A stretch of DNA of 39,815 nt from Hyphomicrobiales bacterium. GTDB taxonomy: Bacteria; Pseudomonadota; Alphaproteobacteria; Rhizobiales; Rhizobiaceae. Location of the stretch: positions 1-39,815 of the forward strand of contig UCNG01000031.1 in assembly GCA_900473915.1 (NCBI GenBank), read 5' to 3'. A model generated the notes under the pieces. The model did no database searches. It was not told the origin of the DNA and worked only from the letters and a program-made list of their open reading frames with translations. This document shows, piece after piece, positions 1 through 39,726 of this stretch (positions are counted from its first letter, which is position 1; each line of letters opens with the position of its first letter). Position numbers and translations under genes: made by a program.

Positions 1-82
1 GGCAAACCCGGTGCGGTTCAAGAAGATCCATAATCCGGGTCGATGCTGGCATTTCTTGCAGAAAGGTAGGCCGCATTCTCAT
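1..82 (-). CDS. Partial ORF running off the left edge, third gene of a small SOS-type operon, unknown function
   Basis: An open reading frame starts with ATG at 82-80 and stays open for 27 codons to base 1. Its ATG overlaps the TGA of the upstream gene by four bases (ATGA), the same coupling that joins the two genes before it. A second in-frame ATG at 76-74 is an alternative start. The visible N-terminus reads MRMRPTFLQEMPASTR and then continues as a short amphipathic stretch. I do not recognise the protein, and 27 residues are too few to assign a family. Position and overlap suggest it belongs to the operon driven by the LexA-type promoter at 644-678. It could also be a chance short frame. 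Confidence 0.45.
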   Translation of the reverse strand, partial: MRMRPTFLQEMPASTRIMDLLEPHRVC

Positions 83-378
83 CGATCAAAATACGTTGCC
101 CACGGCTTGGATTTCTTGTCCGTCGGGTCGTAAGGCAATCCGCCATAAAGCCGAATGAACTCTTGCTGGCCTTCCTGCGTCGCGAATTTCACGATCGAGA
201 AATGATACCCTTCATAATATTGGTAGCCATGCAGGTGATAGGCTCCGAGCCGGTGCTCATCCGCGATAACTTCCAAAAGCCGTTGGCGTAATTCGTCTGT
301 CAGATACAAAACGACCTGAAACGGAAAATGCTTATTGATGAGCGTTTTTGGCGGCTCGCCACGTGATCTGCCGCTCAT
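79..378 (-). CDS. Small hypothetical protein (99 aa), second gene of cassette 1
   Basis: This 99-residue protein has no family that I recognise. Its ATG overlaps the stop of the upstream small gene by four bases (ATGA), so the two are very probably translated together. The central and C-terminal part has alternating hydrophobic residues (YHFSIVKFAT) and then a QEFIRLYGGLPYDP segment, suggesting a small alpha/beta fold. The 78-residue product at 745-981 has the same order of features: an N-terminal FQV.L, an RLGA, an F..F.T strand and a GG.P turn. The two are probably distant paralogues, although identity is low. No signal peptide, membrane helix or metal-binding motif is visible. Operon position suggests SOS induction. 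Confidence 0.7.
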   Translation of the reverse strand: MSGRSRGEPPKTLINKHFPFQVVLYLTDELRQRLLEVIADEHRLGAYHLHGYQYYEGYHFSIVKFATQEGQQEFIRLYGGLPYDPTDKKSKPWATYFDR

Positions 379-572
379 TTCACAAACACCGTCGGTTTCC
401 AGCCACGTGCAAAGCCCATCGACATAGCCAGACTGGCGTATTCGATTTCTTTGACGAGAAAATCCCGATCTTTCAGAAGCGCCTCGATCGCAGCCCGTAC
501 GTCGCCCTTGTGGTAGGCGAGAACCAGTTCGATTTCATCGTTGTATTCATTTTCCTGCGCAATCGCACTCAT
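375..572 (-). CDS. Small UBA-like helical protein (65 aa), first gene of cassette 1
   Basis: The start chosen is ATG at 572, because GGAG lies seven bases upstream; a longer frame from 599 has no such site. The protein is rich in acidic residues and Ala/Leu. Its core, YHKGDVRAAIEALLKDRDFL, resembles the last helices of UBA/EF-Ts-type domains, in which a G-D motif precedes an A-I-x-x-L-L helix. That resemblance is by eye only. The same core recurs in the product at 981-1166 with most residues identical, so the genes are clear paralogues. It is the first gene after a promoter with a perfect GTTC-N7-GTTC box (644-658). Function is unknown; a small partner or adaptor of a DNA-damage protein is one possibility. 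Confidence 0.75.
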   Translation of the reverse strand: MSAIAQENEYNDEIELVLAYHKGDVRAAIEALLKDRDFLVKEIEYASLAMSMGFARGWKPTVFVK

Positions 573-643
573 TGTTCTGCTCCATTGAAGCAGACACACA
601 CGCCACCAAGCATGTCTGTGAGGTTGTCGGGCCGCCTCCCGAT

Positions 644-678
644 GTTCTTAAAATGTTCTCATCTACAACGAGAGTCAA
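644..678 (-). promoter_or_regulatory. SOS-type promoter with LexA box, cassette 1
   Basis: Bases 644-658 read GTTC-TTAAAAT-GTTC, a perfect match to the GTTC-N7-GTTC LexA operator of alphaproteobacteria. On the minus strand a TTGACT -35 (678-673) is followed, after 17 bases, by a weak CATTTT -10 inside the box, so bound LexA would block the polymerase. Box, spacing and -35 are the same as in the promoter at 1189-1223. The untranslated leader to the ATG at 572 is about 70 bases. Confidence 0.8.
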
Positions 679-744
679 TCGCGGACTCACGGCTGTGGAA
701 ACTTGTGGGATTGCCTGTGGATTTTCTGTGTGCATTCGCTGGGT

Positions 745-981
745 TTATCGAACCAGAACCCTTTCCCATTTCCCATCGCCAAACGGCTTGCCGCCGTGCC
801 TACGCATAAATGCGCTCATGCACCTTTCAGTAGGAAAACTGAAAACGCAGAAACCAACTCCAGACTTGCGGGCCATGCGATGAGGCAGGCGAGCGCCGAG
901 CCGATCAGCATCGCGATGCACCTCGCGACGCGCGAACTTCAATGCGTAAGATTCTGGAAGGGCGACCTGGAAAGTTTTCAT
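745..981 (-). CDS. Small hypothetical protein (78 aa), second gene of cassette 2
   Basis: The start chosen is ATG at 981-979, which overlaps the TGA of the upstream gene by one base (TGATG); a GTG one codon earlier is possible. The protein is strongly basic, rich in Arg, His and Lys, and could bind nucleic acid. It shares a sparse pattern with the 99-residue product at 79-378: FQV near the N-terminus, ADRLGA, an F.VFSF.TE strand and an F.R..GG.P turn. It lacks the N-terminal extension of that protein. I recognise no family. It is the last gene of cassette 2; beyond its stop lies only the promoter and leader of cassette 1. Confidence 0.65.
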   Translation of the reverse strand: MKTFQVALPESYALKFARREVHRDADRLGARLPHRMARKSGVGFCVFSFPTERCMSAFMRRHGGKPFGDGKWERVLVR

Positions 982-1166
982 CACGCTGCCCTTTTAAAGA
1001 GCTCGACCGGCTGACCATGGGTGACAGCGAGACGCGATAGCTCTACTTCGCGAATGAGGAAGTCGCGGTCTTTCAAAAGCGCTTCAATGGCCGCGTGCGC
1101 GTCTCCGCCGTGATAAGCGAGAACTTCCTCGATCTCGGCGTCATAGCTTTGGACAAGAGCGTTCAT
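981..1166 (-). CDS. Small UBA-like helical protein (61 aa), first gene of cassette 2
   Basis: The start chosen is ATG at 1166, preceded at seven bases by AGGAG; a longer frame from 1241 would run through the promoter. Residues from about 9 to 40 (acidic EIEEVLAYHGGDAHAAIEAL and the following KDRDFL) match the product at 375-572 nearly residue for residue, so the two are recent paralogues. The GD..AAIEALL pattern resembles a UBA/EF-Ts N-terminal helical hairpin. That is an inference from pattern, not a search result. The C-terminus differs from its paralogue and is basic. It is the first gene after a LexA-type promoter, with a leader of about 25 bases, and overlaps the next gene. Confidence 0.75.
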   Translation of the reverse strand: MNALVQSYDAEIEEVLAYHGGDAHAAIEALLKDRDFLIREVELSRLAVTHGQPVELFKRAA

Positions 1167-1188
1167 AGGTTTCTCCTGCTTTTTTGAT

Positions 1189-1223
1189 GTTCTTATTTTG
1201 TTCTCATTTTTGATCGCAGTCAA
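1189..1223 (-). promoter_or_regulatory. SOS-type promoter with LexA box, cassette 2
   Basis: Bases 1189-1203 read GTTC-TTATTTT-GTTC, a perfect alphaproteobacterial LexA operator. On the minus strand TTGACT (1223-1218) and CAAAAT are separated by 17 bases, with the -10 inside the operator. The 14 bases between box and -35 have the same length as in the promoter at 644-678. The site lies between divergent genes, about 100 bases from the integrase start at 1304. Confidence 0.85.
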
Positions 1224-1303
1224 GAGGTGTTGATTCTGCATCGCTAGCTTGTCCGCTCATGTGCCGTTGTATATTATGTGCCAAAATTATCAGGAGTTCA
1301 TTT

Positions 1304-2449
1304 TTGGCCAAGATTAAGAAGCGGTCATGGAAGAATGCCAGCGGGCAGCACGAGGCTTGGCAGCTCGATTTTACGGATCGACTTGGCAAACGGCACCGTG
1401 AGCAGTTCACAAAGAAGCGCGAAGCAGAAGCAAGGCTGGCTGAACTCATCGCCACGACAGGTTCAGCCACTTACAAAGAAGATGCGAAGAAAACTACTGT
1501 CGCAGACGTTTGCGACGATTTCTATAAAGCCATGGATCTGCGCCACAAACGTGGTGAGAAGGTCGTTCAGTCATATCTTCGAACGACGAAGCAGCATTTC
1601 GACAATTGGATCAACCCCACCGACGAAAGCAGCATCAGCTTCGAAAACGGCATTGGCGAGAAAACGCTGGCAGAACTAACGACAGCTGATGTCATCAAGT
1701 TTCGTGACGACATGCGCAATGCAGGAGCGGGGATTGTCACCACGCGCCGCGTTCTAGGCACGTTAAGCCGCACCCTCAAGCACGGTATTGAAACGAACAA
1801 GGTCGGCGTAAACGTTGCGAAGGGTGTCCGCGTCATTGGAAAGCGGGACGAAGGATCGGAGCGAGTAACGCCGCCGTCCAAGATGGCTTTAGCGGCAATC
1901 CTCAATCTTGCTCAGTCGCCTATCGACCTGCGCATCCGATTTGCCGCTGCCACCGGCCTGCGTGCTTCGGAACAGTGGGCGCTGCGATGGGCGCACATAG
2001 ATCTGGAAAATGGTCACGTCAGTGTCGAGACGCGCGTTGATGCCTATGGCGAGTTTGACACGACAAAGTCGGGGGCGGGCCGCCGAACCGTTCCAATCGG
2101 AAAGGCGATGATTGATCAGCTGAAGGCGTGGAAAGCGTCGTCCAAGCATAACGGATTTGACGACTTCGTATTCACCGACAGCAGGGGCGGCTTCATTAGG
2201 CATACGAATTTTATGAAACGGGATTGGAGGCCCCTTATCGCAAAGACGAACGCCCCGGATATCGGATGGCACGCGTTGAGGCATTATGCGATTTCGACGT
2301 GGATCGAAGCCGGACTTTCCCCCAAGGCCGTGCAGACATTGGCGGGCCACGCCAGTTACGCAATAACCATGAATCGATACGGCCATCTGTTCCCATCCGA
2401 CGATCATAAGGCAGCATTCGACAGGATTGCCGAAACGCTCGCCTCATGA
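1304..2449 (+). CDS. int: Tyrosine-type site-specific integrase of an integrative element
   Basis: This is a 381-residue phage/ICE-type tyrosine recombinase. The start chosen is TTG at 1304, because AGGAG lies at 1292-1296 with seven-base spacing; an in-frame ATG at 1259 has no such site. Residues 1-60 form a basic arm-type DNA-binding region, about 62-175 the helical core-binding domain, and about 190-375 the catalytic domain. The catalytic set is complete: R220 (TGLRASE), K255, H323 and R326 (HALRH), H349 (GHAS) and the nucleophile Y359 (MNRYGH). It therefore looks active. The gene ends 60 bases before a displaced tRNA-Lys 3' half, the expected attachment site, and diverges from the SOS-type cassettes. 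Part of its promoter region is shared with them. Confidence 0.93.
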   Translation: MAKIKKRSWKNASGQHEAWQLDFTDRLGKRHREQFTKKREAEARLAELIATTGSATYKEDAKKTTVADVCDDFYKAMDLRHKRGEKVVQSYLRTTKQHFDNWINPTDESSISFENGIGEKTLAELTTADVIKFRDDMRNAGAGIVTTRRVLGTLSRTLKHGIETNKVGVNVAKGVRVIGKRDEGSERVTPPSKMALAAILNLAQSPIDLRIRFAAATGLRASEQWALRWAHIDLENGHVSVETRVDAYGEFDTTKSGAGRRTVPIGKAMIDQLKAWKASSKHNGFDDFVFTDSRGGFIRHTNFMKRDWRPLIAKTNAPDIGWHALRHYAISTWIEAGLSPKAVQTLAGHASYAITMNRYGHLFPSDDHKAAFDRIAETLAS

Positions 2450-2509: not shown

Positions 2510-2559
2510 ACTGACTTTTAATCAGTAGGTCCAGGGTTCGAATCCCTGCGCGCTCACCA
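2510..2559 (+). other. Displaced 3' half of tRNA-Lys(TTT): attachment-site scar
   Basis: The stretch folds as the 3' part of a tRNA. The anticodon arm has a 5-bp stem (2510-2514 with 2522-2526) and loop CTTTTAA with anticodon TTT. A five-base variable loop follows, then a T arm with stem CAGGG/CCCTG and loop TTCGAAT (2532-2548), the acceptor strand CGCGCTC, discriminator A and CCA (2557-2559). No D arm or 5' acceptor strand (expected GAGCGCG) precedes it; upstream is AT-rich. Tyrosine integrases commonly recombine in the anticodon loop to 3' end segment, so this is most likely the duplicated end of the element, with the intact tRNA at its other end. Confidence 0.85.
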
Positions 2560-2653: not shown

Positions 2654-4066
2654 TCAACTGGCCGGTCGTGGCGGCAATCCGGCACGGGTGCGCATCTTTT
2701 CCAGTAGGCTTGCGGCAATTGGCTCATAATTTTCATCGAAATGATGACCCCCCGCCAGTTTCATGACTTCCATGCCCTTCAGTTCGGGAGCAGTGCAGGC
2801 AGTATCCTCTTCTTCCTGGCCATAGACACAAACCACCCGGTCAAGGGGGATCGTCGATATGGCCGGAATGACCTCCTTGTCACCATCCATTCCAAGCCAT
2901 CCTTCAATGGAAACCTGAAATGTGGTTGTGGTTTCAACACCGAGTAGGCCGATCATTTTCGTCCGGTCCTGTATGGCGGCAGGCAGATATTTCCAGGCAA
3001 ACGGAAATGTATCCGCGCCAAATGAATAGCCTAGAACAGCTACCGGCAATTTATTCGTCGGGTCAGCTTTTTTGATCATCGCCGTCGTATCATTGGCGAT
3101 TTCCTCTGGTGTGCGTTCTGACCAGAAATAACGCAGAGAATCCACACCGATCACGTGGACGCCGTGCACCTGCAGCCACTCGCCAATGGATTTGTCGAGG
3201 TCGCGCCAGCCGCCGTCTCCCGAATAGAAGACAGCAATCATATCGGCTTTTCCGTTCTTGGCGGGGAGGTCGACTATAGGGAGGGCTTCGTTTTTGGCAT
3301 CCTGATCCGCCATGGCCACGACATTGTCGACGGCCATTTTCAGGCGTGCCGGAAACGCAGGAGCGGATTGAAGTACGGCGAAATTTTCCTGTCGGGCTGC
3401 AACGGGATCGTTGACCGGCGATCCGGTTGGTCCAATTACAAGGGCAGGGGCCGGAATTGAAACATTGAAACCATAGGTGAAACCTCCACCGGGGGCCTTG
3501 GTTGCTGCGGCTTTTTCCGTGCATGAAGGCAGGTGGGTCTTGGCCGGAACCGGATCAAGCGCAACAGCGCCTGCAATCGTTGCATCCGGCGAATCCGAGG
3601 CGGCCGCATAAGCAATGGTCGCGCCTTGTCCAACGCCTGTCAGGACGGGGTGAAAATAGACGCCGAGATCCAGCCCGCGCAAGGCTTCCTTGGCGATGGC
3701 TTCGAAATCGGAGTCCAGATAGTTGCATTCGCCGTCCTCCTTATCGAGAGCGGCGCGCCATGGGCCTAGCTCGACCGGCAGAACGATCATGTTTCGGGCA
3801 AGCATGGCATCCATGAATTGTTTTTCGCGGTCGCCTATGCCGCCCTCATCGCTCAGCAGGATAGCAAGACCCATTGGGTCGTTCTCGGGCATGTAAACGG
3901 GGATATTGGACAGCCTCTCGGCGCTGGCATGAATAACCGGTTCGTCGGAATCGATTATTTTTGTCCAGAGCCGGGCGATTTTACCCGTGTGCAATGCGCC
4001 GTATACACCCGCCGCTGCCACCAAAGCCAGCCCGAGCACAATAGAGAGAACGCGTCTTTTCGTCAT
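2654..4066 (-). CDS. acvB: AcvB/VirJ-family periplasmic hydrolase, likely lysyl-phosphatidylglycerol hydrolase
   Basis: The 470-residue protein starts with a hydrophobic segment (about 6-24) that acts as a signal peptide or anchor. Two alpha/beta-hydrolase-like parts follow. The first has GVGQGA where a nucleophile Ser would be expected and looks degenerate. The second has GYSFGAD (GxSxG type) and a late GGHHFDE, giving a plausible Ser and His. This two-part build is that of Agrobacterium AcvB, whose C-terminal half equals VirJ and which hydrolyses lysyl-phosphatidylglycerol in the periplasm. The ATG overlaps the lpiA stop by four bases, so synthase and hydrolase are made together. Related operons respond to acid and matter in host contact. 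No terminator with a clear T run follows. Confidence 0.87.
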
Positions 4067-6771
4067 TTGCGGATGAACTCCAGGGGGCTGCCATTGATGA
4101 GGGTTGTGGCATCGAGGAGCGCGCGTGGCGTCTCAAGTCCGCCCGGGCAAACCATATAATGCGGGGTCCAGACAGGGTCGAATTTTTCCTTGAAGGCTTT
4201 CAGTCCGCCGAAGTGATAGAGATCGGCGCCGCGCTTGTAGATGAAGGAGCCAAAGCGGTTCCAGCGGGAGGCCAGCCGACTGCCGCTCAGGCCGGAAAGG
4301 GGGGCAGCGCCAAGGTTGAACCACTTGTACCCTTGTTCCTTGCCAGCCATCATCAGTTTTGCGAACAGTGCGTCCATCAGAAGTTTGTGCACATCGGGCA
4401 TATAGCGCATGAGGTCGACGGTGATTTCATACTTGTCCGCGCCGCGCCATATATTGGCGAAAGCCACGATTTTGCCTTCGCTTTTCAACACCGCGACGTC
4501 GAAACGTTTCATATATTCGTCATCGAAATACCCCAGCGAAAACCCCTTTTCGCTGCCTGATTTGAAGTCGAGCCACGCGTCGGAAATCTCCCGCAAGCGT
4601 GGAATGAGCGGCGGCACGTCAGCTGCAGGGATGATTTCAAATGTCAGCCCGTCCTTGTCGACCTTGCGGTCGGCATAGCGAAACGGCTGGCGGCGTGGAC
4701 CATCGAGCGAGAAATTGGCGAGATCGACACGCGCGACTTCGCCCAGTTTCAGCGCGACCAGGCCCATGTCCAGAAACAGAGGCAGGCTTTGCGGGCCAAC
4801 GCCATAAAACACGGTTCGCAAGGCAAGCTTGTCGGCCAGTCCGTGGAATGACCACGCGAGCTCCTTGCCGGTCTGTTCATTGCCGATGGGATCGCCGAGC
4901 GCGATCAGGCTACCGCCAGACTGCGCATACATGATGAAGGAACTCTCGTCGGGAGCGAGCAGAAACTGCTTGTCGCCGAGCAGCGCCAGAGCAGCGTCGG
5001 TATGTGGGCATTGGGCGACGAGAGCAGGCACGGCATCAGGTATCGAATAATCCACCTTCCGCCAGCGGTGCCCATTCCTGTTGATGATCGAATAAAGGCC
5101 GGCTGCGGCAACCACGGCGAAGACAAGGACCGTTGCCCGCAGAAACCGAGGTGCATTGCCATTCCAGGCGAAATCCCACCAGAGAGTGTTGGAATATTCC
5201 ACGTGGCGATAGACGAAGAAGCCGAGCCATGTGGAAACGAGCACAGTCGTGCCGACTGTCGCGATCCAGTTCCAGCTCAGGTCAAACGGTCCCAAAATGG
5301 GGCGGCGATAGAACGAATCCCGGAACCCCCACAGCGTGAAAGCGAAGAGGCACAGGGTGATAGCTTCTTCCCAATCAAGGCCCTTGGTCAGCGAAAAGGC
5401 TGCGCCGCTGAGAAGAAGAATTTGCGCGGCTATCCAGGCACGGGCAAGCCTCTTCGAGAGGCCGCGAGCAACGATGAGCAGTGCGACGCCAACGAGACTG
5501 GCGGCGAGGTGCGACATTTCCATGAAAGATTCCGGAACGATATCGGAGAGCACTTCGACGCGGTAACGGAGGTCTGGCGTGGCTCCGGAAACGAGAAGCA
5601 TGATCCCGCCCAGAAAGATGATACTGGCAGACAGGGCTGGGATGAGTGGCTCGACCAGCCGCTTGGCAAAGCGCGCCTGCTTGCCGAGCATATGGCGGCG
5701 GCGCATGATCTCCCATATGAGAATGCCTGCTGTGGCCACGACAAGCGGCATGACGGTATAGACGAGCCGGTACGCAAGAAGACCCGCGATGGCATCCGGC
5801 TTGCCGCCGAGACCAAGTCCCGCAATGATGGTCGCTTCAAATGCACCCAGGCCACCTGGAGCATGGCTGGCGATACCAAGCACGATGGCGATCACATAGA
5901 CCAGTGCGAAAACCGCAAAGCTTGGCACAGCGTCGGCAGGCATGAGGACATAGAGCGTGGCGGCCGCAGCCCCCACATCGACAAGCCCGGCAAAGATCTG
6001 GGTTAGTGCGCCTTTGGAGTTCGGCAGGCGCAGGCTGAACGAGCCTATCGTGAAACTGCGTTGTCCATGCGACAGCCAGAAGATCAGCCAGCCAACACTT
6101 CCCAGAATGGCGATGCCCGCAACGATATCGATGCGGGGATCAATGGTGGAAAGCCATGGAACGTCCTTTGGGTCGATCAACAAGGCTGCACCAACCATGA
6201 TGATCAGGGCAAACCAGATCGCAAACCAAGAGGTCCCGACAATCTTGCCGATGTCGGCAAGGCTCACACCTTCTGCCGCATAGATGCGATAACGCAGGGC
6301 ACCACCGGTCAGCAGCGAAAAGCCGAGTGCGTTGGATATCGCATAGCCAGCAGCACCCGCCACAGCAGCAATTCGGCGCGGTATCTGGTTGGGCGCGATC
6401 GTATCCACGGCCACGACATCGTAGAGCGCAACTGCCGCATAGCTGAGAGCCGTGAAGAGCACGGCCAGGCCGAGCGTCGTCCATGAGATGCTGTGGAAGG
6501 CAGCTAGCGTTTCCGTGCGAGACGTATGCTGGAGCAGATTTTCCAGCACATAAATTGCAAGCAACGCAATGGCGATACCGGCTATCGGAAACAGAAAATG
6601 TTGGTAGCGGGTGAACCAGCCATGATGTCTTGCTGACGTTTCGGATGGCATGGGAGGCACTTCGTCATCATCAATAAGGCTCATAGGAACATCGTCCGGT
6701 TGGAGCAACATATATAAATCGCGCAATGATCTCGATTTAGGGCGAACTTGTGGTCGAGCGAGATGCCGCAT
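4063..6771 (-). CDS. lpiA: Bifunctional lysylphosphatidylglycerol flippase/synthetase (MprF/LpiA)
   Basis: This 902-residue inner-membrane protein transfers lysine from Lys-tRNA to phosphatidylglycerol and flips the product, lowering the negative charge of the membrane. After a soluble N-terminus, a long run of membrane helices (about 50-580) forms the flippase. The C-terminal 300 residues are the soluble DUF2156 synthase domain, with GDPIGNE, a basic [20 protein letters not shown] region and FDPVW near the end. The start is uncertain: ATG at 6771 gives the longest form, while ATG at 6711 or 6684 would shorten it by 20 or 29 residues, and none has a strong ribosome site. acvB follows with a four-base overlap. 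The 91 bases to ccdA must hold divergent promoters. Confidence 0.93.
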
Positions 6772-33196: not shown

Positions 33197-35206
33197 TTAG
33201 AACTGGAACTGGGTCGAGACGAGGAAGGTGCGTCCGCGGCCAGAGCCATAGGTGCTGAGAGCAGGAGTGTATTCCTTGTCAGCAATGTTGAGCACCTGAA
33301 GCGAAAGATCGACCGTATCGGTGAACTTGTACTTCGCGAAGACATCCACCAGCGTGTAAGGGTCGGTATCGCTTCCGCTGATGCTCCTGCCGCTCGAAAC
33401 GTGCTGAACCCGCAAGCCGCTTTCGAGCTTGCGCTCGAAGAAGCGCGCACCCGCCGTAACCGTTACGACATCTTCCGGTAAATACTGGTTCGCTCCAAGC
33501 CCTGCCGTCTGTTTGGGCAGTTCTGAGGTGGAATGCGTATAAGCAATGCCAGCGAAGGCGAAGCCAGCGTCATAACGAGCGTCGAGTTCGAAACCTTTCA
33601 CATCGGAAGTGCCGTCCACGTTGATGAACTGACTGTTCGTGCTGGAGGCTGTGATATAGTCTTCAACTCGCATCATGTAGTAGTTGGCCTTAACACGCAG
33701 GCCGTCTTCCGCTGTAAAGATGCCGTCGCGTGCGATATTGACGCCGAACTCCCAGCCGCGCTGCTTTTCAGGGCGCAGGTCTGGATTGCCCCGCAAACCT
33801 GTTGTACCCGCATGGGCAACGCCACCAAGGAAGGTTTCCTGCAAGGTTGGCGAGCGCATGGAATGCGCATAGGTGATGTAGGGCTGCAGCCAGTCGGTCA
33901 GGTTATAAGCAACTGTGACCTTGGGGCTGAGTTCGCCATCGCTGTTCGAAATGGAGCTGTCTTCGCTCTCGAGCTTGAAATAATCGTAGCGCAGGCCGGT
34001 GACGACTTGCAGGGCCTGATAATTCCAGGTCGCCTCCGAGAAGACTGCGCCGCGATTGGAGTTGGCATCCGTCGGGTTGACGCCAGTGATGTTGCCGCCT
34101 GCATTGTCGCGGTTGATTTCAAAGCCGTTCTTCCACGCAACAGCTACATCACCAAAGGTGAAGCGCGACGTGTTTGAGGCGGTCATCCCTGTGGTGTCCG
34201 TTGAAATCTGACGCCCTACATAGCTGCCATTGCCGCCCACCCAGTTTTGCAGCGTGCTGTTGTGGTACACGTTGACATCAAGGTCGATGAGATTGTTGTC
34301 GGACGGGTTATAGTTATACTGTGCGAAGAATGTGCGGTTCTGGAGGAACATATCGTAGATCGTATAGGTTCCCGGACGGTAGCCGGTCGCATACGTTCCG
34401 TAATGGTTGTTGTAGAGCACGCCACCAAGTGTCAGCTTCTGGTCCTCGCCAAGACCGAACTCGGTTTTGAACAGGCCGGAGGTCAGTTCCTCGCCGGACT
34501 TCTCGACAGTAACGCCGTCGCCGTTCTTGTAGTTGTTGGAATCGTGACGGCTGAATGCGGCAACTAGCCCGATGGAATTGACGCGGGCTGCTCCCGCCAG
34601 CATTTCGGAAAAGCCGGTGCCATTACGGCCCCAGGAGGCACGGCCGAGAACGCCCTTGTCCTTGCCGTCAAGAATGACATCGTCAACGCCGAGCGTGCGG
34701 AAGTTGACGCTTCCTGCGAGAGCGGTGCCGCCTTCGGTCGTGACCGCGCCGCGCGCCACATCGATTTCGGACAGCAGGTTGGGATCGATATAGGCATAGC
34801 CCTGTGCATCATGCGCGGTATTGCGATAGCTCTGCGGTACGCCATCAATCATCATGTTGACGCGACCGGAACCCTCGAAGCCGCGGATATTGACGGCGAC
34901 ACCCGGGTTGGAGCCGCTCTGGAGGGTGAAGACGCCTGCGGTTCCGCGCAGCACATCATCGAGTTTCGCGCCACCGAAGCGATTGATCTCTTCGCGGTTC
35001 ACCTTGCCCACGGGCGCCGTGACCGAGGTCGGCACCTGCGCGTCGTTCGCTCTGCGAATAGTGATTGTTTTCAGCGCGACGGCGGCTTCATCTTCAGCCG
35101 CTTTCTGCTCCTGCGCGAATGCCTGTGACGTCATCGCCACGAGAATGACGGCAAGCCCCGTGCTTGCCTGAAATGACCTTTTATAAACCCCACCAGTCGC
35201 CCGCAT
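33197..35206 (-). CDS. bhuA: TonB-dependent heme/hemoglobin receptor BhuA
   Basis: An outer-membrane receptor that imports heme with energy from TonB. From ATG at 35206 (AAGGAA nine bases upstream) it has 669 residues; ATG at 35224 or 35248 would lengthen the N-terminus. A signal peptide ends near AFAQEQ. A plug domain follows (VREDVLRG-like KLDDVLRGTAGV, NIRGFEGSGRVNMMIDG), then the barrel, ending in a terminal Phe (STQFQF). Heme-receptor marks are visible: SMRSPTLQE in place of the FRAP box, NPDL in place of the NPNL box, and a His between them (GGVAHAG), the expected heme ligand. A RirA-type operator covers its inferred -35. hmuPSTUV lies divergently. Confidence 0.92.
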   Translation of the reverse strand: MRATGGVYKRSFQASTGLAVILVAMTSQAFAQEQKAAEDEAAVALKTITIRRANDAQVPTSVTAPVGKVNREEINRFGGAKLDDVLRGTAGVFTLQSGSNPGVAVNIRGFEGSGRVNMMIDGVPQSYRNTAHDAQGYAYIDPNLLSEIDVARGAVTTEGGTALAGSVNFRTLGVDDVILDGKDKGVLGRASWGRNGTGFSEMLAGAARVNSIGLVAAFSRHDSNNYKNGDGVTVEKSGEELTSGLFKTEFGLGEDQKLTLGGVLYNNHYGTYATGYRPGTYTIYDMFLQNRTFFAQYNYNPSDNNLIDLDVNVYHNSTLQNWVGGNGSYVGRQISTDTTGMTASNTSRFTFGDVAVAWKNGFEINRDNAGGNITGVNPTDANSNRGAVFSEATWNYQALQVVTGLRYDYFKLESEDSSISNSDGELSPKVTVAYNLTDWLQPYITYAHSMRSPTLQETFLGGVAHAGTTGLRGNPDLRPEKQRGWEFGVNIARDGIFTAEDGLRVKANYYMMRVEDYITASSTNSQFINVDGTSDVKGFELDARYDAGFAFAGIAYTHSTSELPKQTAGLGANQYLPEDVVTVTAGARFFERKLESGLRVQHVSSGRSISGSDTDPYTLVDVFAKYKFTDTVDLSLQVLNIADKEYTPALSTYGSGRGRTFLVSTQFQF

Positions 35207-35393
35207 TTCCAATGTTTCCTTCATGACCAGACGCGCTTCGTCGGCCAATGGTCGACGAAGAAATCCAAAAAATTCAATTGTTTATGACTTCCCCCTCGGG
35301 AAAAGGCCGCGTGCTGGCTGGGAAGAAACTTCTCCCTGGCTGGCGCTGGAAAAAGCGAGATTTAAACTTGACTCGTTTATTCCAGTAATGCAG

Positions 35394-35422
35394 TGATTAA
35401 TAAACATGACTCTTGATGTCAA
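35394..35422 (-). promoter_or_regulatory. bhuA promoter with overlapping RirA-type iron operator
   Basis: On the minus strand a perfect TTGACA (35422-35417) and TAATCA (35399-35394) are separated by 17 bases. Bases 35407-35421 read TGA-CTCTTGATG-TCA, the TGA-N9-TCA form of the iron-responsive operator bound by RirA in rhizobia, and overlap the -35. That layout fits repression when iron is plentiful. The site is about 55 bases upstream of hmuP on the other strand and could control both directions. Confidence 0.6.
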
Positions 35423-35475
35423 CAAAACAAATTTGCTGTCATCACCGTGTGGAAAGTCGATGCTGAGGCAAGAGA

Positions 35476-35760
35476 ATGAACAGGCGTATCCATATCGACA
35501 TGCAGGTGCGGTTGCCGCGCGGACCCGTTTCCGAGCGGACAGCAAATTGCATTCCCGAAAGCCAGCTCCGCAGCGATTCGAACGAAACTGTTCCGGCTCA
35601 GATAAAACCTCGCCTCGGCGAGAGTGCGCTTGAGCCGCAACTGAAGACCTATGGCAGCCGCGAACTTTTCGACGGCTCCCGGGAAGTGTGCATAGAGCAC
35701 GGCGGCTCGCTCTATCGCCTCAGGATCACCCGCCAAGGCAAGCTCATCCTTAACAAATAG
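35476..35760 (+). CDS. hmuP: Hemin uptake protein HmuP/HemP
   Basis: The last 35 residues of this 94-residue frame (SRELFDGSREVCIEHGGSLY, then RLRITRQGKLILNK) are the HemP domain. In Bradyrhizobium the related HmuP works with Irr as a co-activator of the heme operon. The first 55 residues are not conserved in the family as far as I can tell; the start used is ATG at 35476 with GAGG upstream, and ATG at 35500 is an alternative. hmuS begins 10 bases after the stop, so it is the first gene of hmuPSTUV. The RirA-type site lies upstream. Confidence 0.88.
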   Translation: MNRRIHIDMQVRLPRGPVSERTANCIPESQLRSDSNETVPAQIKPRLGESALEPQLKTYGSRELFDGSREVCIEHGGSLYRLRITRQGKLILNK

Positions 35761-35770
35761 GCAACATCAG

Positions 35771-36847
35771 ATGACGACCCATACCAAGCCCTCCCCAGAG
35801 GCGATTCTCAAGGCACGGGCTGATAATCCAAAAATGCGTGAACGTGATTTTGCGCAGTTCCTCAGTGTATCAGAAGCTGATTTTGTTGCAGCACATTGCG
35901 GGCAGCCCGAGACAGCGCCGATTTCTGCGCGGCGCATTCGTGCCGATGTCGAAACGCTGTTGAACCGCATCGCATCTGTCGGTGAAATCATGGCTCTGAC
36001 GCGCAATGAAAGCGTTGTTCATGAAAAGATCGGACCTTTTGAAAAGACGATCTGGGGTCCGCATGCTTCGCTGGCGCTTGGCAAGGAAATCGACCTTCGC
36101 ATTTTCCCGAAGCACTGGGTTCACGGTTTTGCTGTCGCCAAACAGGATGGCGAAGCAACGCGCCGCAGCCTACAGTTCTTCGACGCCACGGGCGAGGCAG
36201 TCTTCAAGATTCACCTGCGTCCAGCTTCTAATATTGCAGCCTATGAAGCGCTCGTTGCTGATATGCTGCTGGACGATCAGTCACCTGTTATCGAAACCAG
36301 CATCCTCGCTCCCAAGGGACCGAAGGCGGATGTGTCTCTTCTCGATATTGACGCATTCCGCGAGCGTTGGGGTGCTCTCACCGATGTGCACCAGTTTGTC
36401 GGCTTGCTGAAGGATTTTGGCGTTGACCGGCATCAGGCCGTGCATCTCGCCGGTCATGATTTCGCTTGGCGGGTCGATACCTCGTCGGTCGAAGCCATGA
36501 TGAACCATGCGGTGCAGGAAAAGCTGCCAATCATGTGCTTTGTCGGAAGTCGCGGCTGCATCCAGATTCACACGGGGCTGATCCGCGAGATCAAGATGAT
36601 GGGGCCGTGGCTGAATGTGCTGGACCCAACTTTCCACATGCATCTGCGCACCGATCACATTGCCGATGTATGGGTCGTGCGCAAGCCAACGAAGGACGGT
36701 CATGTCACATCGCTAGAAGCCTATGATGCCAATGGCGAACTGATCGTTCAGTTTTTTGGTGAGCGTCATGAAGGTGAAGCGGAACTGGCGGACTGGCGCA
36801 TGATTGCGGAAAATCTTCCGCATCTGCCGCAGTCGTCTGCTGCGTAA
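35771..36847 (+). CDS. hmuS: Hemin-degrading/heme-trafficking factor HmuS
   Basis: HmuS is a cytoplasmic heme-binding protein that takes heme from the importer and passes it on or degrades it. The 358-residue protein has the two-repeat layout of the family (HemS/ChuX-like), with typical segments RADNPKMRERDFAQFL near the N-terminus, EKIGPFEKTIWGPHASLALG, FFDATGEAVFKIHLR and VGSRGCIQIHTG. The histidine-rich HQAVHLAGHDFAW stretch is a plausible heme-ligand region. It starts 10 bases after hmuP and is followed 10 bases later by hmuT. How it shares work with BhuQ, which also acts on heme, is not clear. Confidence 0.94.
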   Translation: MTTHTKPSPEAILKARADNPKMRERDFAQFLSVSEADFVAAHCGQPETAPISARRIRADVETLLNRIASVGEIMALTRNESVVHEKIGPFEKTIWGPHASLALGKEIDLRIFPKHWVHGFAVAKQDGEATRRSLQFFDATGEAVFKIHLRPASNIAAYEALVADMLLDDQSPVIETSILAPKGPKADVSLLDIDAFRERWGALTDVHQFVGLLKDFGVDRHQAVHLAGHDFAWRVDTSSVEAMMNHAVQEKLPIMCFVGSRGCIQIHTGLIREIKMMGPWLNVLDPTFHMHLRTDHIADVWVVRKPTKDGHVTSLEAYDANGELIVQFFGERHEGEAELADWRMIAENLPHLPQSSAA

Positions 36848-36857
36848 GGTGACGGCG

Positions 36858-37748
36858 ATGTCGTTCATCTTCACGCGTTTCAGGCGCGGCGCAGGCTTGG
36901 TTGCCATCGCCTTGTCGCTCGCTGCTGGTACGGCTCGCGCTGAAACGGTCGATCATTTCACCGACACGTCGCGCATTGTTTCCGTTGGCGGATCACTGAC
37001 GGAAATAGTCTACGCTCTCGGCGCGGAAAAAATGCTCGCCGGGCGTGACCAGACGAGCATTTATCCCGACGCAGCGAAGAAGCTGCTTGATGTAGGATAT
37101 ATGCGCCAGCTTGCGCCCGAAGGCGTTCTTTCGGTCAATCCGACCGGCATTCTGCTTCTGGAAGGCAGCGGCCCGCAGGATACGCTCGATGTTCTGAAAA
37201 AGGCGTCCGTGCCAATGATCGTCGTGCCGGAGGCCTTCACCGGCGAAAGCGTCGTCAGGAAAATCGAGATCGTGGGCAAGGCTCTCGATCAGGAAGACAA
37301 GGCCAAGGAACTCGCTGCCGAAGTTTCTCGTGATATCGAAGCGGCTGAAAAGGCTGCGGCGGGTCACAACCCTCGCAAACGTGTGCTTTTCGTACTGTCG
37401 GCTCCAGGCGGGCGCATGATGGCATCAGGCACTGGCACTGCGGCTGATGGCATGATCAGGCTTGCCGGCGGTGAAAACGTGATCAGCGAGTATCACGGAT
37501 ACAAGCAGCTGACTGACGAGGCCGTTGAGAAAAAAGCGCCTGATATGATCCTGATCATGAATACAGGTTCGGATGGGATGACGCCGGAATCGCTCATGAA
37601 AAACCCGGTTATCGCGGCAACACCAGCGGGGCGTAACGGGAATATCATTTCGATGGAGGCGTCCTATCTGTTGGGTTTCGGGCCGCGAACCGGCGCTGCC
37701 ATTCGTGACCTGTCGGCAAAACTCTACGGCGCTCCTACGGGGCAGTAA
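36858..37748 (+). CDS. hmuT: Periplasmic heme-binding protein HmuT
   Basis: The binding protein of the heme ABC importer, 296 residues from ATG at 36858 (AAGGTGA just upstream); an earlier in-frame ATG at 36804 lies inside hmuS. A signal peptide ends near ARAETV. The mature part shows the cobalamin/heme-binding pattern (RIVSVGGSLTEIVYALGAE, then VLSVNPTGILLLEGSGP) and a long linking helix (EDKAKELAAEVSRDIEAAEK). The conserved Tyr in VGYMRQLAPE is a likely heme ligand, by analogy with ShuT/HmuT. hmuU follows after 54 bases. Confidence 0.94.
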   Translation: MSFIFTRFRRGAGLVAIALSLAAGTARAETVDHFTDTSRIVSVGGSLTEIVYALGAEKMLAGRDQTSIYPDAAKKLLDVGYMRQLAPEGVLSVNPTGILLLEGSGPQDTLDVLKKASVPMIVVPEAFTGESVVRKIEIVGKALDQEDKAKELAAEVSRDIEAAEKAAAGHNPRKRVLFVLSAPGGRMMASGTGTAADGMIRLAGGENVISEYHGYKQLTDEAVEKKAPDMILIMNTGSDGMTPESLMKNPVIAATPAGRNGNIISMEASYLLGFGPRTGAAIRDLSAKLYGAPTGQ

Positions 37749-37802
37749 CATGGTCGGGCTTGCGCGGTTCAAGCGCGAGTCTGATTGCAAGGATTATTCG
37801 AA

Positions 37803-38915
37803 ATGACGATCCAAGGTCGCGTGGTGCGAGAACAGCGCATTGCAGCGCGTCTTTCAGAAAATGACACGGGCGATCGTGCGGCACGCGCGCGGCTCACCAT
37901 CATATTGCTCGCGATGGCCTTGTGCATCGCTGCTCTTTTCAGTCTTACGGCTGGCGCTTCGGATGCGTCCGTGCTTTCGGTTTTGCGCGCCCTGACCTCC
38001 GGCGGAGCCGAGGGCGCGGATGCATTTCGGCGCGATCATCTGATCATCGTAGAAATCCGCCTGCCGCGCATCGTCATGGGCATGCTGATAGGAGCGGGGC
38101 TCGCGGTTTCCGGGGCTGTCATGCAGGGTCTTTTCCGCAATCCGCTTGCCGATCCGGGTCTCGTCGGCGTTTCTGCCGGAGCAAGCCTTGGAGCGGTATC
38201 CATGATTGTTTTGGGAGGCACACTTCTTGCGCCTGTCATTGCCATGCTTGGCGTCTATGCGCTGCCGCTAGCCGCATTTCTGGGCGGGCTTTGCAGCACG
38301 TTTCTACTCTATCGAGTGGCGACACGGAGAGGCCGAACCTCTGTGGCAACCATGCTGCTTGCAGGTATCGCACTGGCGGCCTTAGCAGGGGCTGCCACCG
38401 GCGGGCTTATCTATCTGGCCGATGACCGTCAGCTCCGAGACCTGACATTCTGGAGCCTTGGCTCGCTTGCCGGCTCCACTTGGGCGAAGATCGGCGCCGC
38501 AGGTCCGATTATTGCCGCCGTCCTTGTCGTGTCGCCCTTGCTGGCGCGGGGCCTCAATGCGCTGGCTCTTGGAGAAGCTGCCGCTGGCCATCTCGGCATT
38601 CAGGTGCAGCGCATCAAAAACATCGCCATTGTCACGGTTGCTGCCGCCACCGGCGCGACGGTAGCCGTCGCAGGCGGGATTGGCTTTATCGGTATCGTGG
38701 TGCCGCATATGCTGCGCCTCGGGATCGGTCCGGATCATCGCTATCTGCTGCCAGCATCGGCCTTGCTGGGTGCGACGCTTCTGCTGCTCGCAGATGCGGT
38801 AAGCCGCACAATTGTGGCTCCCGCAGAATTGCCGATCGGCATCATCACCGCGCTTTTCGGTGCGCCGTTCTTCCTCTGGATATTGCTGCGCCAGCGCGGC
38901 CTGCTCGATCTGTGA
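37803..38915 (+). CDS. hmuU: Heme ABC importer permease HmuU
   Basis: A FecCD-family permease with ten helices expected, 370 residues from ATG at 37803; AAGGA lies upstream, and the TTG at 37785 is less likely. Family marks are RLPRIVMGMLIGAGLAVSGA, QGLFRNPLADPGLVGVSAGA and the late GFIGIVVPHMLR. The permease works as a homodimer with HmuV. The N-terminus is a basic 40-residue cytoplasmic tail. hmuV starts eight bases after the stop. Confidence 0.95.
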   Translation: MTIQGRVVREQRIAARLSENDTGDRAARARLTIILLAMALCIAALFSLTAGASDASVLSVLRALTSGGAEGADAFRRDHLIIVEIRLPRIVMGMLIGAGLAVSGAVMQGLFRNPLADPGLVGVSAGASLGAVSMIVLGGTLLAPVIAMLGVYALPLAAFLGGLCSTFLLYRVATRRGRTSVATMLLAGIALAALAGAATGGLIYLADDRQLRDLTFWSLGSLAGSTWAKIGAAGPIIAAVLVVSPLLARGLNALALGEAAAGHLGIQVQRIKNIAIVTVAAATGATVAVAGGIGFIGIVVPHMLRLGIGPDHRYLLPASALLGATLLLLADAVSRTIVAPAELPIGIITALFGAPFFLWILLRQRGLLDL

Positions 38916-38922
38916 GGCTGTC

Positions 38923-39726
38923 ATGATTGAAACAAACTCATTGAGCGTAAGCCTGTCGGGCAAAAACATCATCAGCGACATCGGCTTTTCCGCCAAACCG
39001 GGCGAGGTGACGGCAATCGTCGGGCCCAACGGCTCCGGTAAGACCACGCTGCTGCGTGCGCTTTCCGGTGACGTTGTATATACTGGAACGGCTTGCCTCG
39101 ATGGCCAATCCTTCGCGGAAATCAAGCCGTGGCAGATGGCGGCGCGCCGGGCCGTGTTGCCACAAGCAAGCGGCTTGTCATTTCCCTTCACGGTACGAGA
39201 GATCGTGAAGATCGGGCTTACGGGCGGCTATAGCGGCGTTTCTCGCGATGAAGAAAAGCGGCTGCCCGATCTCGCCTTGCAAAGGGTTGATCTTGCCGGT
39301 TTCAGCGGGCGGCTCTATCAGGAGCTCTCCGGGGGAGAGCAGCAGCGTGTGCAGCTTGCTCGTGTTCTGTGTCAGGTCTGGAAGCCGGTCGTGGACGGCA
39401 AGGCGCGGTATCTGTTTCTGGATGAGCCGATTTCAAGCCTCGATATACGGCATCAGATCGTCGTGATGGAGATTGCGAAGGATTTCGCGGCGGCAGGGGG
39501 CGGAGTGATCGCGATCCTGCACGACCTTAACCTGACTGCCATGTTCGCCGATCGTATCGCAGTGATGAGCAAGGGCAAGCTTGACGTGATGGGCGCGCCG
39601 CGCGAAGCGCTGACCGATGAGCGGCTCGAACGTGTCTATGAATGCACATTGCGGGTAGGCGTTCCGCCTGAAAAGGGTGTGCCTTTCGTATTGCCACAGT
39701 CTGCCTATCGCGCAGCCGCAGAATGA
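38923..39726 (+). CDS. hmuV: Heme ABC importer ATPase HmuV
   Basis: The ATPase that drives heme import through HmuU, 267 residues from ATG at 38923; the frame upstream overlaps hmuU and is not translated. All motifs are present: Walker A GPNGSGKTT, Q-loop region LPQASGLSF, signature LSGGEQQRVQLARVL, Walker B YLFLDEPISSLD and the switch His (ILHDLNLT). GTGAGG lies just upstream of the start. It ends the hmuPSTUV operon. The only terminator seen after it has its T run on the opposite strand, so how this message ends is not shown. Confidence 0.96.
   Translation: MIETNSLSVSLSGKNIISDIGFSAKPGEVTAIVGPNGSGKTTLLRALSGDVVYTGTACLDGQSFAEIKPWQMAARRAVLPQASGLSFPFTVREIVKIGLTGGYSGVSRDEEKRLPDLALQRVDLAGFSGRLYQELSGGEQQRVQLARVLCQVWKPVVDGKARYLFLDEPISSLDIRHQIVVMEIAKDFAAAGGGVIAILHDLNLTAMFADRIAVMSKGKLDVMGAPREALTDERLERVYECTLRVGVPPEKGVPFVLPQSAYRAAAE

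What the first reader, a model, noticed from the sequence alone, without database searches (positions are those of the whole stretch)
375..1223. Duplicated small-protein operons with identical SOS-type promoters at the edge of an integrative element
Seen: two leftward operons each start with a 61-65 residue protein sharing an almost identical GD..AAIEALLKDRDFL core and each is overlapped by a second small ORF. Each promoter has TTGACT, exactly 14 bases, then a perfect GTTC-N7-GTTC. Known: that box is the LexA operator of alphaproteobacteria. Inferred: the cassette is induced by DNA damage, perhaps together with element mobilisation. No known SOS gene (recA, imuAB, dnaE2, umuDC) is recognised here, so this may be an undescribed SOS module. 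The core resembles a UBA/EF-Ts-type helical hairpin, suggesting a protein-binding adaptor.
Basis: partly seen in the sequence, partly recalled or inferred. Interest (0 to 1): 0.78.

Follow-up and report, generated by a model that had tools for sequence, protein, structure and literature searches.

The report
Damage-switched repair genes in a prophage
Two related pairs of small genes at the edge of a virus-like insertion in a bacterial chromosome sit behind switches that the cell's DNA-damage alarm should open, and relatives in rhizobia and other viruses carry the same switch and often a known DNA-repair gene, which points to an unnamed family of damage-response proteins.

Summary
Two leftward gene pairs (65+99 aa and 61+78 aa) start behind TTGACT-N14-GAAC-N7-GAAC: 2 copies in the window, 0.00 expected. 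All four frames show purifying selection (dN/dS 0.05-0.15). The 61/65-aa proteins form one family, found in 61 of 247 sampled genomes of one bacterial family. The LexA-type box lies within 1.2 kb upstream of 79 of 83 and 56 of 63 copies in two sets, against 43 of 2294 random positions. The same composite promoter precedes ImuA-like, UvrD-like and SRAP genes. The window's operon runs on into a zinc-ribbon gene (start at 82); in relatives SRAP (YedK/HMCES type) follows, 20 of 20 for the 99-aa subtype. Best reading: the 5' end of a prophage-borne, LexA-repressed SRAP damage-tolerance operon whose first two families are unnamed. The leader is predicted as a two-helix hairpin with a conserved RGW tail, not a UBA domain. 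SOS control is well supported by comparison; the biochemical role is inferred. SRAP/zinc-ribbon operons were described in 2013; the two leader families appear new.

The parts
1218..1223 (-). -35-like TTGACT of operon B promoter
1189..1203 (-). LexA-type operator of operon B, GAACAAAATAAGAAC; a -10-like CAAAAT lies inside it, 17 nt after TTGACT (read from the sequence)
981..1166 (-). hairpin protein B (61 aa), lacks the RGW tail and ends -FKRAA
   Evidence: dN/dS 0.089
745..984 (-). second ORF B (78 aa from the ATG at 981), ferredoxin-like fold predicted
   Evidence: dN/dS 0.047 among relatives, window row dropped from that mean
673..678 (-). -35-like TTGACT of operon A promoter
644..658 (-). 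LexA-type operator of operon A, GAACATTTTAAGAAC; a -10-like CATTTT lies inside it
375..572 (-). hairpin protein A (65 aa), keeps the RGWKP tail
   Evidence: dN/dS 0.148
79..378 (-). second ORF A (99 aa), paralogue of second ORF B
   Evidence: dN/dS 0.099
1..82 (-). first 27 codons of a zinc-ribbon gene, cut by the window's end
   Evidence: 16 of 26 identical to L075 homologue; its last ~6 codons differ from relatives
1259..2449 (+). tyrosine integrase of the element
   Evidence: PF00589 E 3.2e-21; phrog_1 integrase E 7e-63
2510..2559 (+). attachment-site end of the element: last 50 nt of tRNA-Lys(TTT)

Best explanation
This is the 5' part of a LexA-repressed operon of a prophage-like element integrated in tRNA-Lys. 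In the undamaged cell LexA sits on GAAC-N7-GAAC, which covers the -10 element of a sigma70-type promoter; after DNA damage LexA is cleaved and the genes are expressed (shown: site, its spacing and its conservation; inferred: binding and induction). The operon then makes a small acidic helical-hairpin protein, a small ferredoxin-like partner, zinc-ribbon proteins and, in relatives, a SRAP protein of the YedK/HMCES type that caps abasic sites in single-stranded DNA. I think the hairpin protein is an adaptor that uses its conserved GxxRGWxP tail to dock on a repair or replication protein and helps damaged DNA, the element's own included, through replication. In this element the two-gene head is present twice, copy B without the tail.
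For: Box within 1.2 kb upstream of 79 of 83 copies (genome contigs set) and 56 of 63 (even draw of one bacterial family), against 43 of 2294 random positions in the same loci; composite promoter 69 of 83, 39 of 63, 6 of 2294. In one relative with a 4.4 Mb genome the only 3 composite sites are those before its 3 family copies. In three other genomes the same composite lies before ImuA-like, UvrD-like and SRAP genes. SRAP lies downstream on the same strand in 20 of 63 even-draw copies, in 37 of 53 viral-contig copies and 17 of 83 genome contigs copies, and is the commonest Pfam family among 132 downstream ORFs (15; next 3). Other neighbours: zinc-ribbon 23 of 63, ATP-dependent ligase 11 of 80, UmuC-type polymerase 3 of 80, Ku 2 of 132 ORFs. 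99-aa subtype: zinc-ribbon and SRAP follow in 20 of 20 hits; the window holds the zinc-ribbon start. Purifying selection on all four frames. Hairpin model pLDDT 87.4; RGW in 54 of 59 rows.
Against: SRAP is absent from most copies in the even draw (43 of 63 have none downstream within 3.5 kb), so the hairpin protein need not act with SRAP. SRAP itself cannot be seen in the window. Bound LexA, induction and any partner of the RGW tail are untested. The hairpin has no fold match and only coiled-coil sequence hits at E 0.04-0.6, so its role rests on neighbours alone. 11 of 63 even-draw copies lack a box within 320 nt (4 of these have one within 1.2 kb, 2 are cut by a contig end). Copy B lacks the tail on which the docking idea rests. 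7 of 19 background boxes also have a TTGACT-like hexamer at 13-15 nt.
Confidence: 0.6

Rival explanations
1. SOS-triggered prophage switch: the small proteins are antirepressors that inactivate the element's own repressor, as Tum of coliphage 186 and the LexA-controlled antirepressors of Salmonella prophages do (recalled; PMC3121763 seen in a search listing only).
For: LexA-type control, small size, place beside the integrase of the element (window; int cluster in 10 of 60 loci), family members in IMG/VR viral contigs and in phages phi2LM21 and Rivra.
Against: The family is also on large rhizobial plasmids and chromosomes, with SRAP, ligase and Ku genes rather than repressors as neighbours. 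In phi2LM21 the CI/Cro-like pair are genes p16/p17 and the family member is p63, far away (passage of PMC5537653); distance does not exclude it.
Confidence: 0.13
2. DNA-damage checkpoint protein: a small SOS-induced inhibitor of cell division, in the manner of Caulobacter SidA and DidA (recalled).
For: Small, LexA-type control, alphaproteobacterial hosts, no enzymatic motif.
Against: No transmembrane stretch: the highest 19-residue mean hydropathy in 59 rows is 1.16, none at 1.6 or more, whereas SidA and DidA are inner-membrane proteins (recalled). Neighbours are repair genes, not division genes.
Confidence: 0.1
3. LexA modulator or feedback regulator: the hairpin or the ferredoxin-like protein binds LexA or RecA and tunes the host's SOS response for the element, as gp7 of Bacillus phage GIL01 binds LexA (PMC4551915, search listing only) or as DinI acts on RecA (recalled; DinI has a similar beta-alpha-beta-beta-alpha order).
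For: LexA-type control at the head of the operon; second ORF of 78 aa with E-H-E-E-H order.
Against: DinI did not appear in the rows shown by either fold search, the second ORF's last helix is not acidic, and the second ORF is missing from many family loci (7 of 63 by profile; 12 of 63 by clustering).
Confidence: 0.1

Closest known systems
SRAP-SOS operons (Aravind, Anand and Iyer 2013, PMC3765255)
   Same: SRAP (DUF159) genes beside UmuC-type polymerase, Ku, ATP-dependent ligase and two zinc-ribbon proteins; SRAP in temperate phages was noted there too.
   Different: The parts I read (abstract, parts 1 and 2 of 5 of the main section, and passages) do not mention a hairpin leader protein, a ferredoxin-like second protein or a LexA box upstream; the figure and additional file were not seen.
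Sinorhizobium phage phi2LM21 (PMC5537653)
   Same: Its gene p63 is a family member (41% identity) behind the same promoter, five genes ahead of the SRAP gene p58; the authors name SRAP among extra genes (passage).
   Different: The authors' text has no occurrence of LexA; no ferredoxin-like second gene was found there.
Alphaproteobacterial LexA regulon (Caulobacter motif GTTCN7GTTC, PMC12700426)
   Same: Same operator; Caulobacter uses the box GTTCttgttatGTTC for two genes (passage), close to GTTCTTATTTTGTTC here.
   Different: The family was not found in 384 other sampled genomes of the class except one weak hit, so it is an accessory, not a core, member.
UBA domains (Pfam UBA_HOIP, UBA_HYPK)
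   Same: Weak local similarity of the helix-loop-helix core (E 0.0036-0.045).
   Different: All scores below the gathering cut-offs; the model has two helices and a disordered tail.

Membership tests
LexA (SOS) regulon of alphaproteobacteria | GTTC-N7-GTTC operator overlapping the promoter | tested here: met
LexA (SOS) regulon of alphaproteobacteria | operator conserved upstream of homologues | tested here: met
   79 of 83 and 56 of 63 within 1.2 kb, control 43 of 2294
LexA (SOS) regulon of alphaproteobacteria | LexA binds and DNA damage induces transcription | not testable with these tools
   needs binding and expression assays
SRAP-SOS operon | SRAP gene in the same transcription unit | tested here: inconclusive
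   not in the window, which ends at base 1 inside the third gene; in relatives of the 99-aa subtype 20 of 20 hits, in the even draw 20 of 63
SRAP-SOS operon | zinc-ribbon gene in the operon | tested here: met
   first 27 codons at 82-1(-); zinc-binding part lies outside the window
UBA domain | Pfam score above gathering cut-off | tested here: not met
   15.9 and 17.7 bits against 22.4
UBA domain | three-helix bundle | tested here: not met
   helices 2-19 and 24-48 only, pLDDT 87.4; a prediction
Tum-like LexA-controlled antirepressor | inactivates the prophage repressor | not testable with these tools
   needs a lysogen assay
SidA/DidA-type division inhibitor | inner-membrane protein | tested here: not met
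   no hydrophobic stretch in 59 rows
DinI | DinI fold | tested here: inconclusive
   E-H-E-E-H order in the model; not among the rows listed
Prophage / integrative element | integrase next to an attachment site in a tRNA gene | tested here: met
   other end and structural genes lie outside the window

The most novel reading that the evidence does not exclude
The hairpin-RGW family is a new class of SOS effector: a mobile, LexA-controlled adaptor that, with its ferredoxin-like partner, recruits SRAP or other damage-tolerance enzymes to stalled forks, spread by prophages and plasmids across Rhizobiaceae-type bacteria and duplicated in this element into a tailed and a tail-less copy, the latter ending in -KRAA and perhaps made to be short-lived or to compete with the first.
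Probability: 0.35. Interest if true: 0.72.

Novelty: new variant of a known kind. Interest (0 to 1): 0.52.

Why it matters
The SOS response of alphaproteobacteria differs from that of E. coli and is poorly mapped outside Caulobacter. A family of small proteins whose copies nearly all sit behind a LexA-type box, on prophages, plasmids and chromosomes, and often lead SRAP operons, is a direct, testable candidate for a missing SRAP partner and for how mobile elements prepare for the damage that mobilises them.

Tried and rejected

Dropped rows and limits: the scan found 155 relatives and kept the best 80; its pattern asks for the RGW tail, so that set favours tailed copies. Of 86 matches I fetched 60 regions holding 63 copies; not examined were three of the centre genome, two of G436, one each of G508 and G533, two of G545 and the fourteen weakest. 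The genome counts score at most 16 and 24 candidates per genome, so they are lower bounds, and each includes the centre genome, which was chosen because it has the family. A3 holds 57 of the 61 thinned relatives plus the two window proteins, and the window rows of A3 and A4 lack one or more residues at the start (wrong end coordinate). and 112 scanned 132 of the 138 ORFs listed (four repeats and two long ORFs left out). One of the 20 hits (L092) is a fragment, and many of the 20 contigs are near relatives. One search used coordinates off by three bases; one search replaces it. Cluster names such as 'terS?' were guesses and are not used. Of the 132 downstream ORFs few match phage families with a named function, so the phage link holds for the viral-contig set only.

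Full report
What is there. On the minus strand the window carries two gene pairs beside an integrase: 984-1166 (61 aa) with 745-981 (78 aa), and 378-572 (65 aa) with 79-378 (99 aa). The first proteins of the pairs are 60% identical over 53 columns, the second proteins 34% over 64 columns (alignment of 15), so a two-gene cassette is duplicated. The third gene of the operon begins at 82: its first 27 codons match the zinc-ribbon protein that follows in relatives (16 of 26 identical, E 5e-11), and the window then ends. To the right lie a tyrosine integrase (1259-2449) and the last 50 nt of tRNA-Lys(TTT) at 2510-2559: all 30 sampled genomes of one related genus have this stretch, in 6 of 30 the match runs on into the integrase side, and ARAGORN finds a whole tRNA-Lys in the two loci checked without that junction (L319, L320) and none in the six with it (L313-L318). 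So this is the integrase end of an integrated element. The chromosome (glmU, glmS, recG, mfd and others, names recalled from the reading frames) and the relatives suggest an Ochrobactrum-type Brucellaceae; that is an inference, as no genome of the window is held.

Are the frames genes? Mean dN/dS among viral-contig relatives is 0.148 (hairpin A, 10 sequences, 45 pairs), 0.089 (hairpin B, 6 sequences, 12 pairs), 0.099 (second ORF A, 5 sequences, 10 pairs) and 0.047 (second ORF B, 6 sequences, 8 pairs; the window row was dropped there for length and saturated pairs were left out).

The promoter. The bare GTTC-N7-GTTC box would not be notable here (3 hits against 1.37 expected), but TTGACT-N14-GAAC-N7-GAAC occurs twice and never in 100 shuffles. 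Read on the minus strand, a -10-like hexamer (CAAAAT, CATTTT) lies inside the box 17 nt after TTGACT, so a bound repressor would cover the promoter (sequence). In the first viral-contig set 33 of the 35 loci that have upstream DNA carry the box with a TTGAC hexamer; L023 and L029 do not. In genome contigs 33 of 80 loci have the box within 200 nt (1.35 expected) and 79 of 83 copies within 1.2 kb; in an even draw of 63 copies 52 have it within 320 nt and 56 within 1.2 kb; random positions in the same loci have it in 14 of 2294 and 43 of 2294. In several Rhizobium loci the box stands before one more gene of about 130-147 aa that precedes the family gene. In the even draw 36 of 52 box-bearing copies have a TTGACT-like hexamer 13-16 nt ahead; 7 of 19 background boxes have one at 13-15 too, possibly other SOS promoters nearby. 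Genome-wide, the composite pattern has 26 sites in four genomes (reversed control 1); in the genome most like the window's (G507) the only 3 sites are those before its 3 family members. Elsewhere it precedes three ImuA-like genes (NF033429, E 1e-9 to 8e-13 on 150-aa fragments, under that model's cut-off), a UvrD-type helicase (PF00580, E 1e-29) and a SRAP gene (PF02586, E 2e-35). The GTTCN7GTTC motif is the published Caulobacter LexA motif (passages of PMC12700426), and the imuABC operon responds to LexA level in Brucella abortus (passages of PMC6813329). LexA control is therefore well supported, though no binding was measured.

The company it keeps. In the viral contigs the gene order is integrase (opposite strand), hairpin, second ORF, zinc-ribbon, zinc-finger, SRAP. 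By profile, of 53 viral-contig copies 33 have the second ORF, 41 a zinc-ribbon and 37 SRAP downstream; of 83 genome contigs copies 17 have SRAP. These sets hold near relatives. In the even draw SRAP lies downstream on the same strand within 3.5 kb of 20 of 63 copies, a zinc-ribbon gene in 23 of 63 and a relative of the second ORF in 12 of 63. Among 132 downstream ORFs SRAP is the commonest Pfam family (15), the next having 3 and Ku 2. In the genome contigs set ATP-dependent ligase genes stand upstream on the other strand in 11 of 80 loci and UmuC-type polymerases in 3 of 80. On a Bartonella plasmid the family gene neighbours DUF2786 and DUF5131 genes. For the 99-aa second-ORF subtype that the window carries, zinc-ribbon and SRAP follow in 20 of 20 hits (one is a fragment). 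The window's operon most likely continues the same way, but this cannot be seen.

The duplication. Two hairpin genes in a row were seen in three contigs, the window included. Ten more viral contigs begin inside a B-type second ORF that is followed by an A-type cassette, so the B-A order may be common and cut by contig trimming. Copy A keeps GFARGWKP; copy B has lost it and ends -FKRAA. RGW is kept in 54 of 59 aligned relatives. A -KRAA end may be a protease tag of the ssrA kind; that is a guess.

Structure. The hairpin protein is predicted with pLDDT 87.4 as helices 2-19 and 24-48 joined by the conserved H-x-G-D turn, then a less certain tail that holds the RGW motif; there is no transmembrane stretch, net charge is 0 to -7 in 59 rows, and no solved or viral fold matches. 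The second ORF is predicted with pLDDT 85.1 as E-H-H-E-E-H-E, a ferredoxin-like order, without a specific relative; copy B is basic (+8 to +10 in most rows), copy A near neutral.

Distribution. 61 of 247 sampled genomes of the centre genome's family have the gene, 27 of 35 of the genus of G507, and 2 of 385 of the class, one being the centre genome itself. It also occurs on 109 plasmid records, mostly Rhizobium, and in phages phi2LM21 and Rivra. This patchy, mobile pattern suits an accessory SOS gene.

Mechanism. Shown: a conserved LexA-type operator over the promoter, translated genes, a recurrent SRAP/zinc-ribbon operon. Known from others: SRAP proteins act on abasic sites (abstract of PMC9436759 in a search listing; their SOS operons in PMC3765255). 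Inferred: the hairpin docks by its tail on a replication or repair protein. I put SOS control at about 0.93, a damage-tolerance role at about 0.6, and the tail-docking adaptor with SRAP at about 0.35. Rivals are an antirepressor, a division inhibitor and a LexA/RecA modulator.

Novelty. The kind is known: LexA-controlled SRAP operons with zinc-ribbon proteins. The two leader families have no model above cut-off in Pfam, NCBIfam or PHROGs, and nine literature searches gave no description, with the limits stated under Tried and rejected. I file it as a new variant of a known kind.

Noticed in passing
L307; cluster 3, 12 of 80 loci: Another small gene behind the SOS promoter in rhizobia, about 60 aa, ends in QLTLDL, which resembles a beta-clamp-binding motif (motif recalled).
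   Followed up: no
L293, L298, L312; cluster 2, 13 of 80 loci: A 120-147 aa gene without a Pfam match (one of them scanned) stands between the SOS box and the family gene in several Rhizobium loci.
   Followed up: partly
window 1-20: The zinc-ribbon frame departs from its relatives over the last six or so codons before the window's end; a hybrid gene, an insertion or a contig edge would explain it.
   Followed up: partly
window 2654-6771: Two overlapping genes, a VirJ/AcvB-like protein and a large membrane protein of the lysyl-phosphatidylglycerol synthase type (names recalled).
   Followed up: no
L306, L301: A DUF2161 (putative PD-(D/E)XK nuclease) gene is the longest frame some 270 nt downstream of the same composite promoter in two genomes, possibly behind a shorter gene (L306 scanned).
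   Followed up: partly
window 33197-39726: Haem-uptake type genes: outer-membrane receptor, periplasmic binding protein, permease and ATPase (names recalled from the frames).
   Followed up: no
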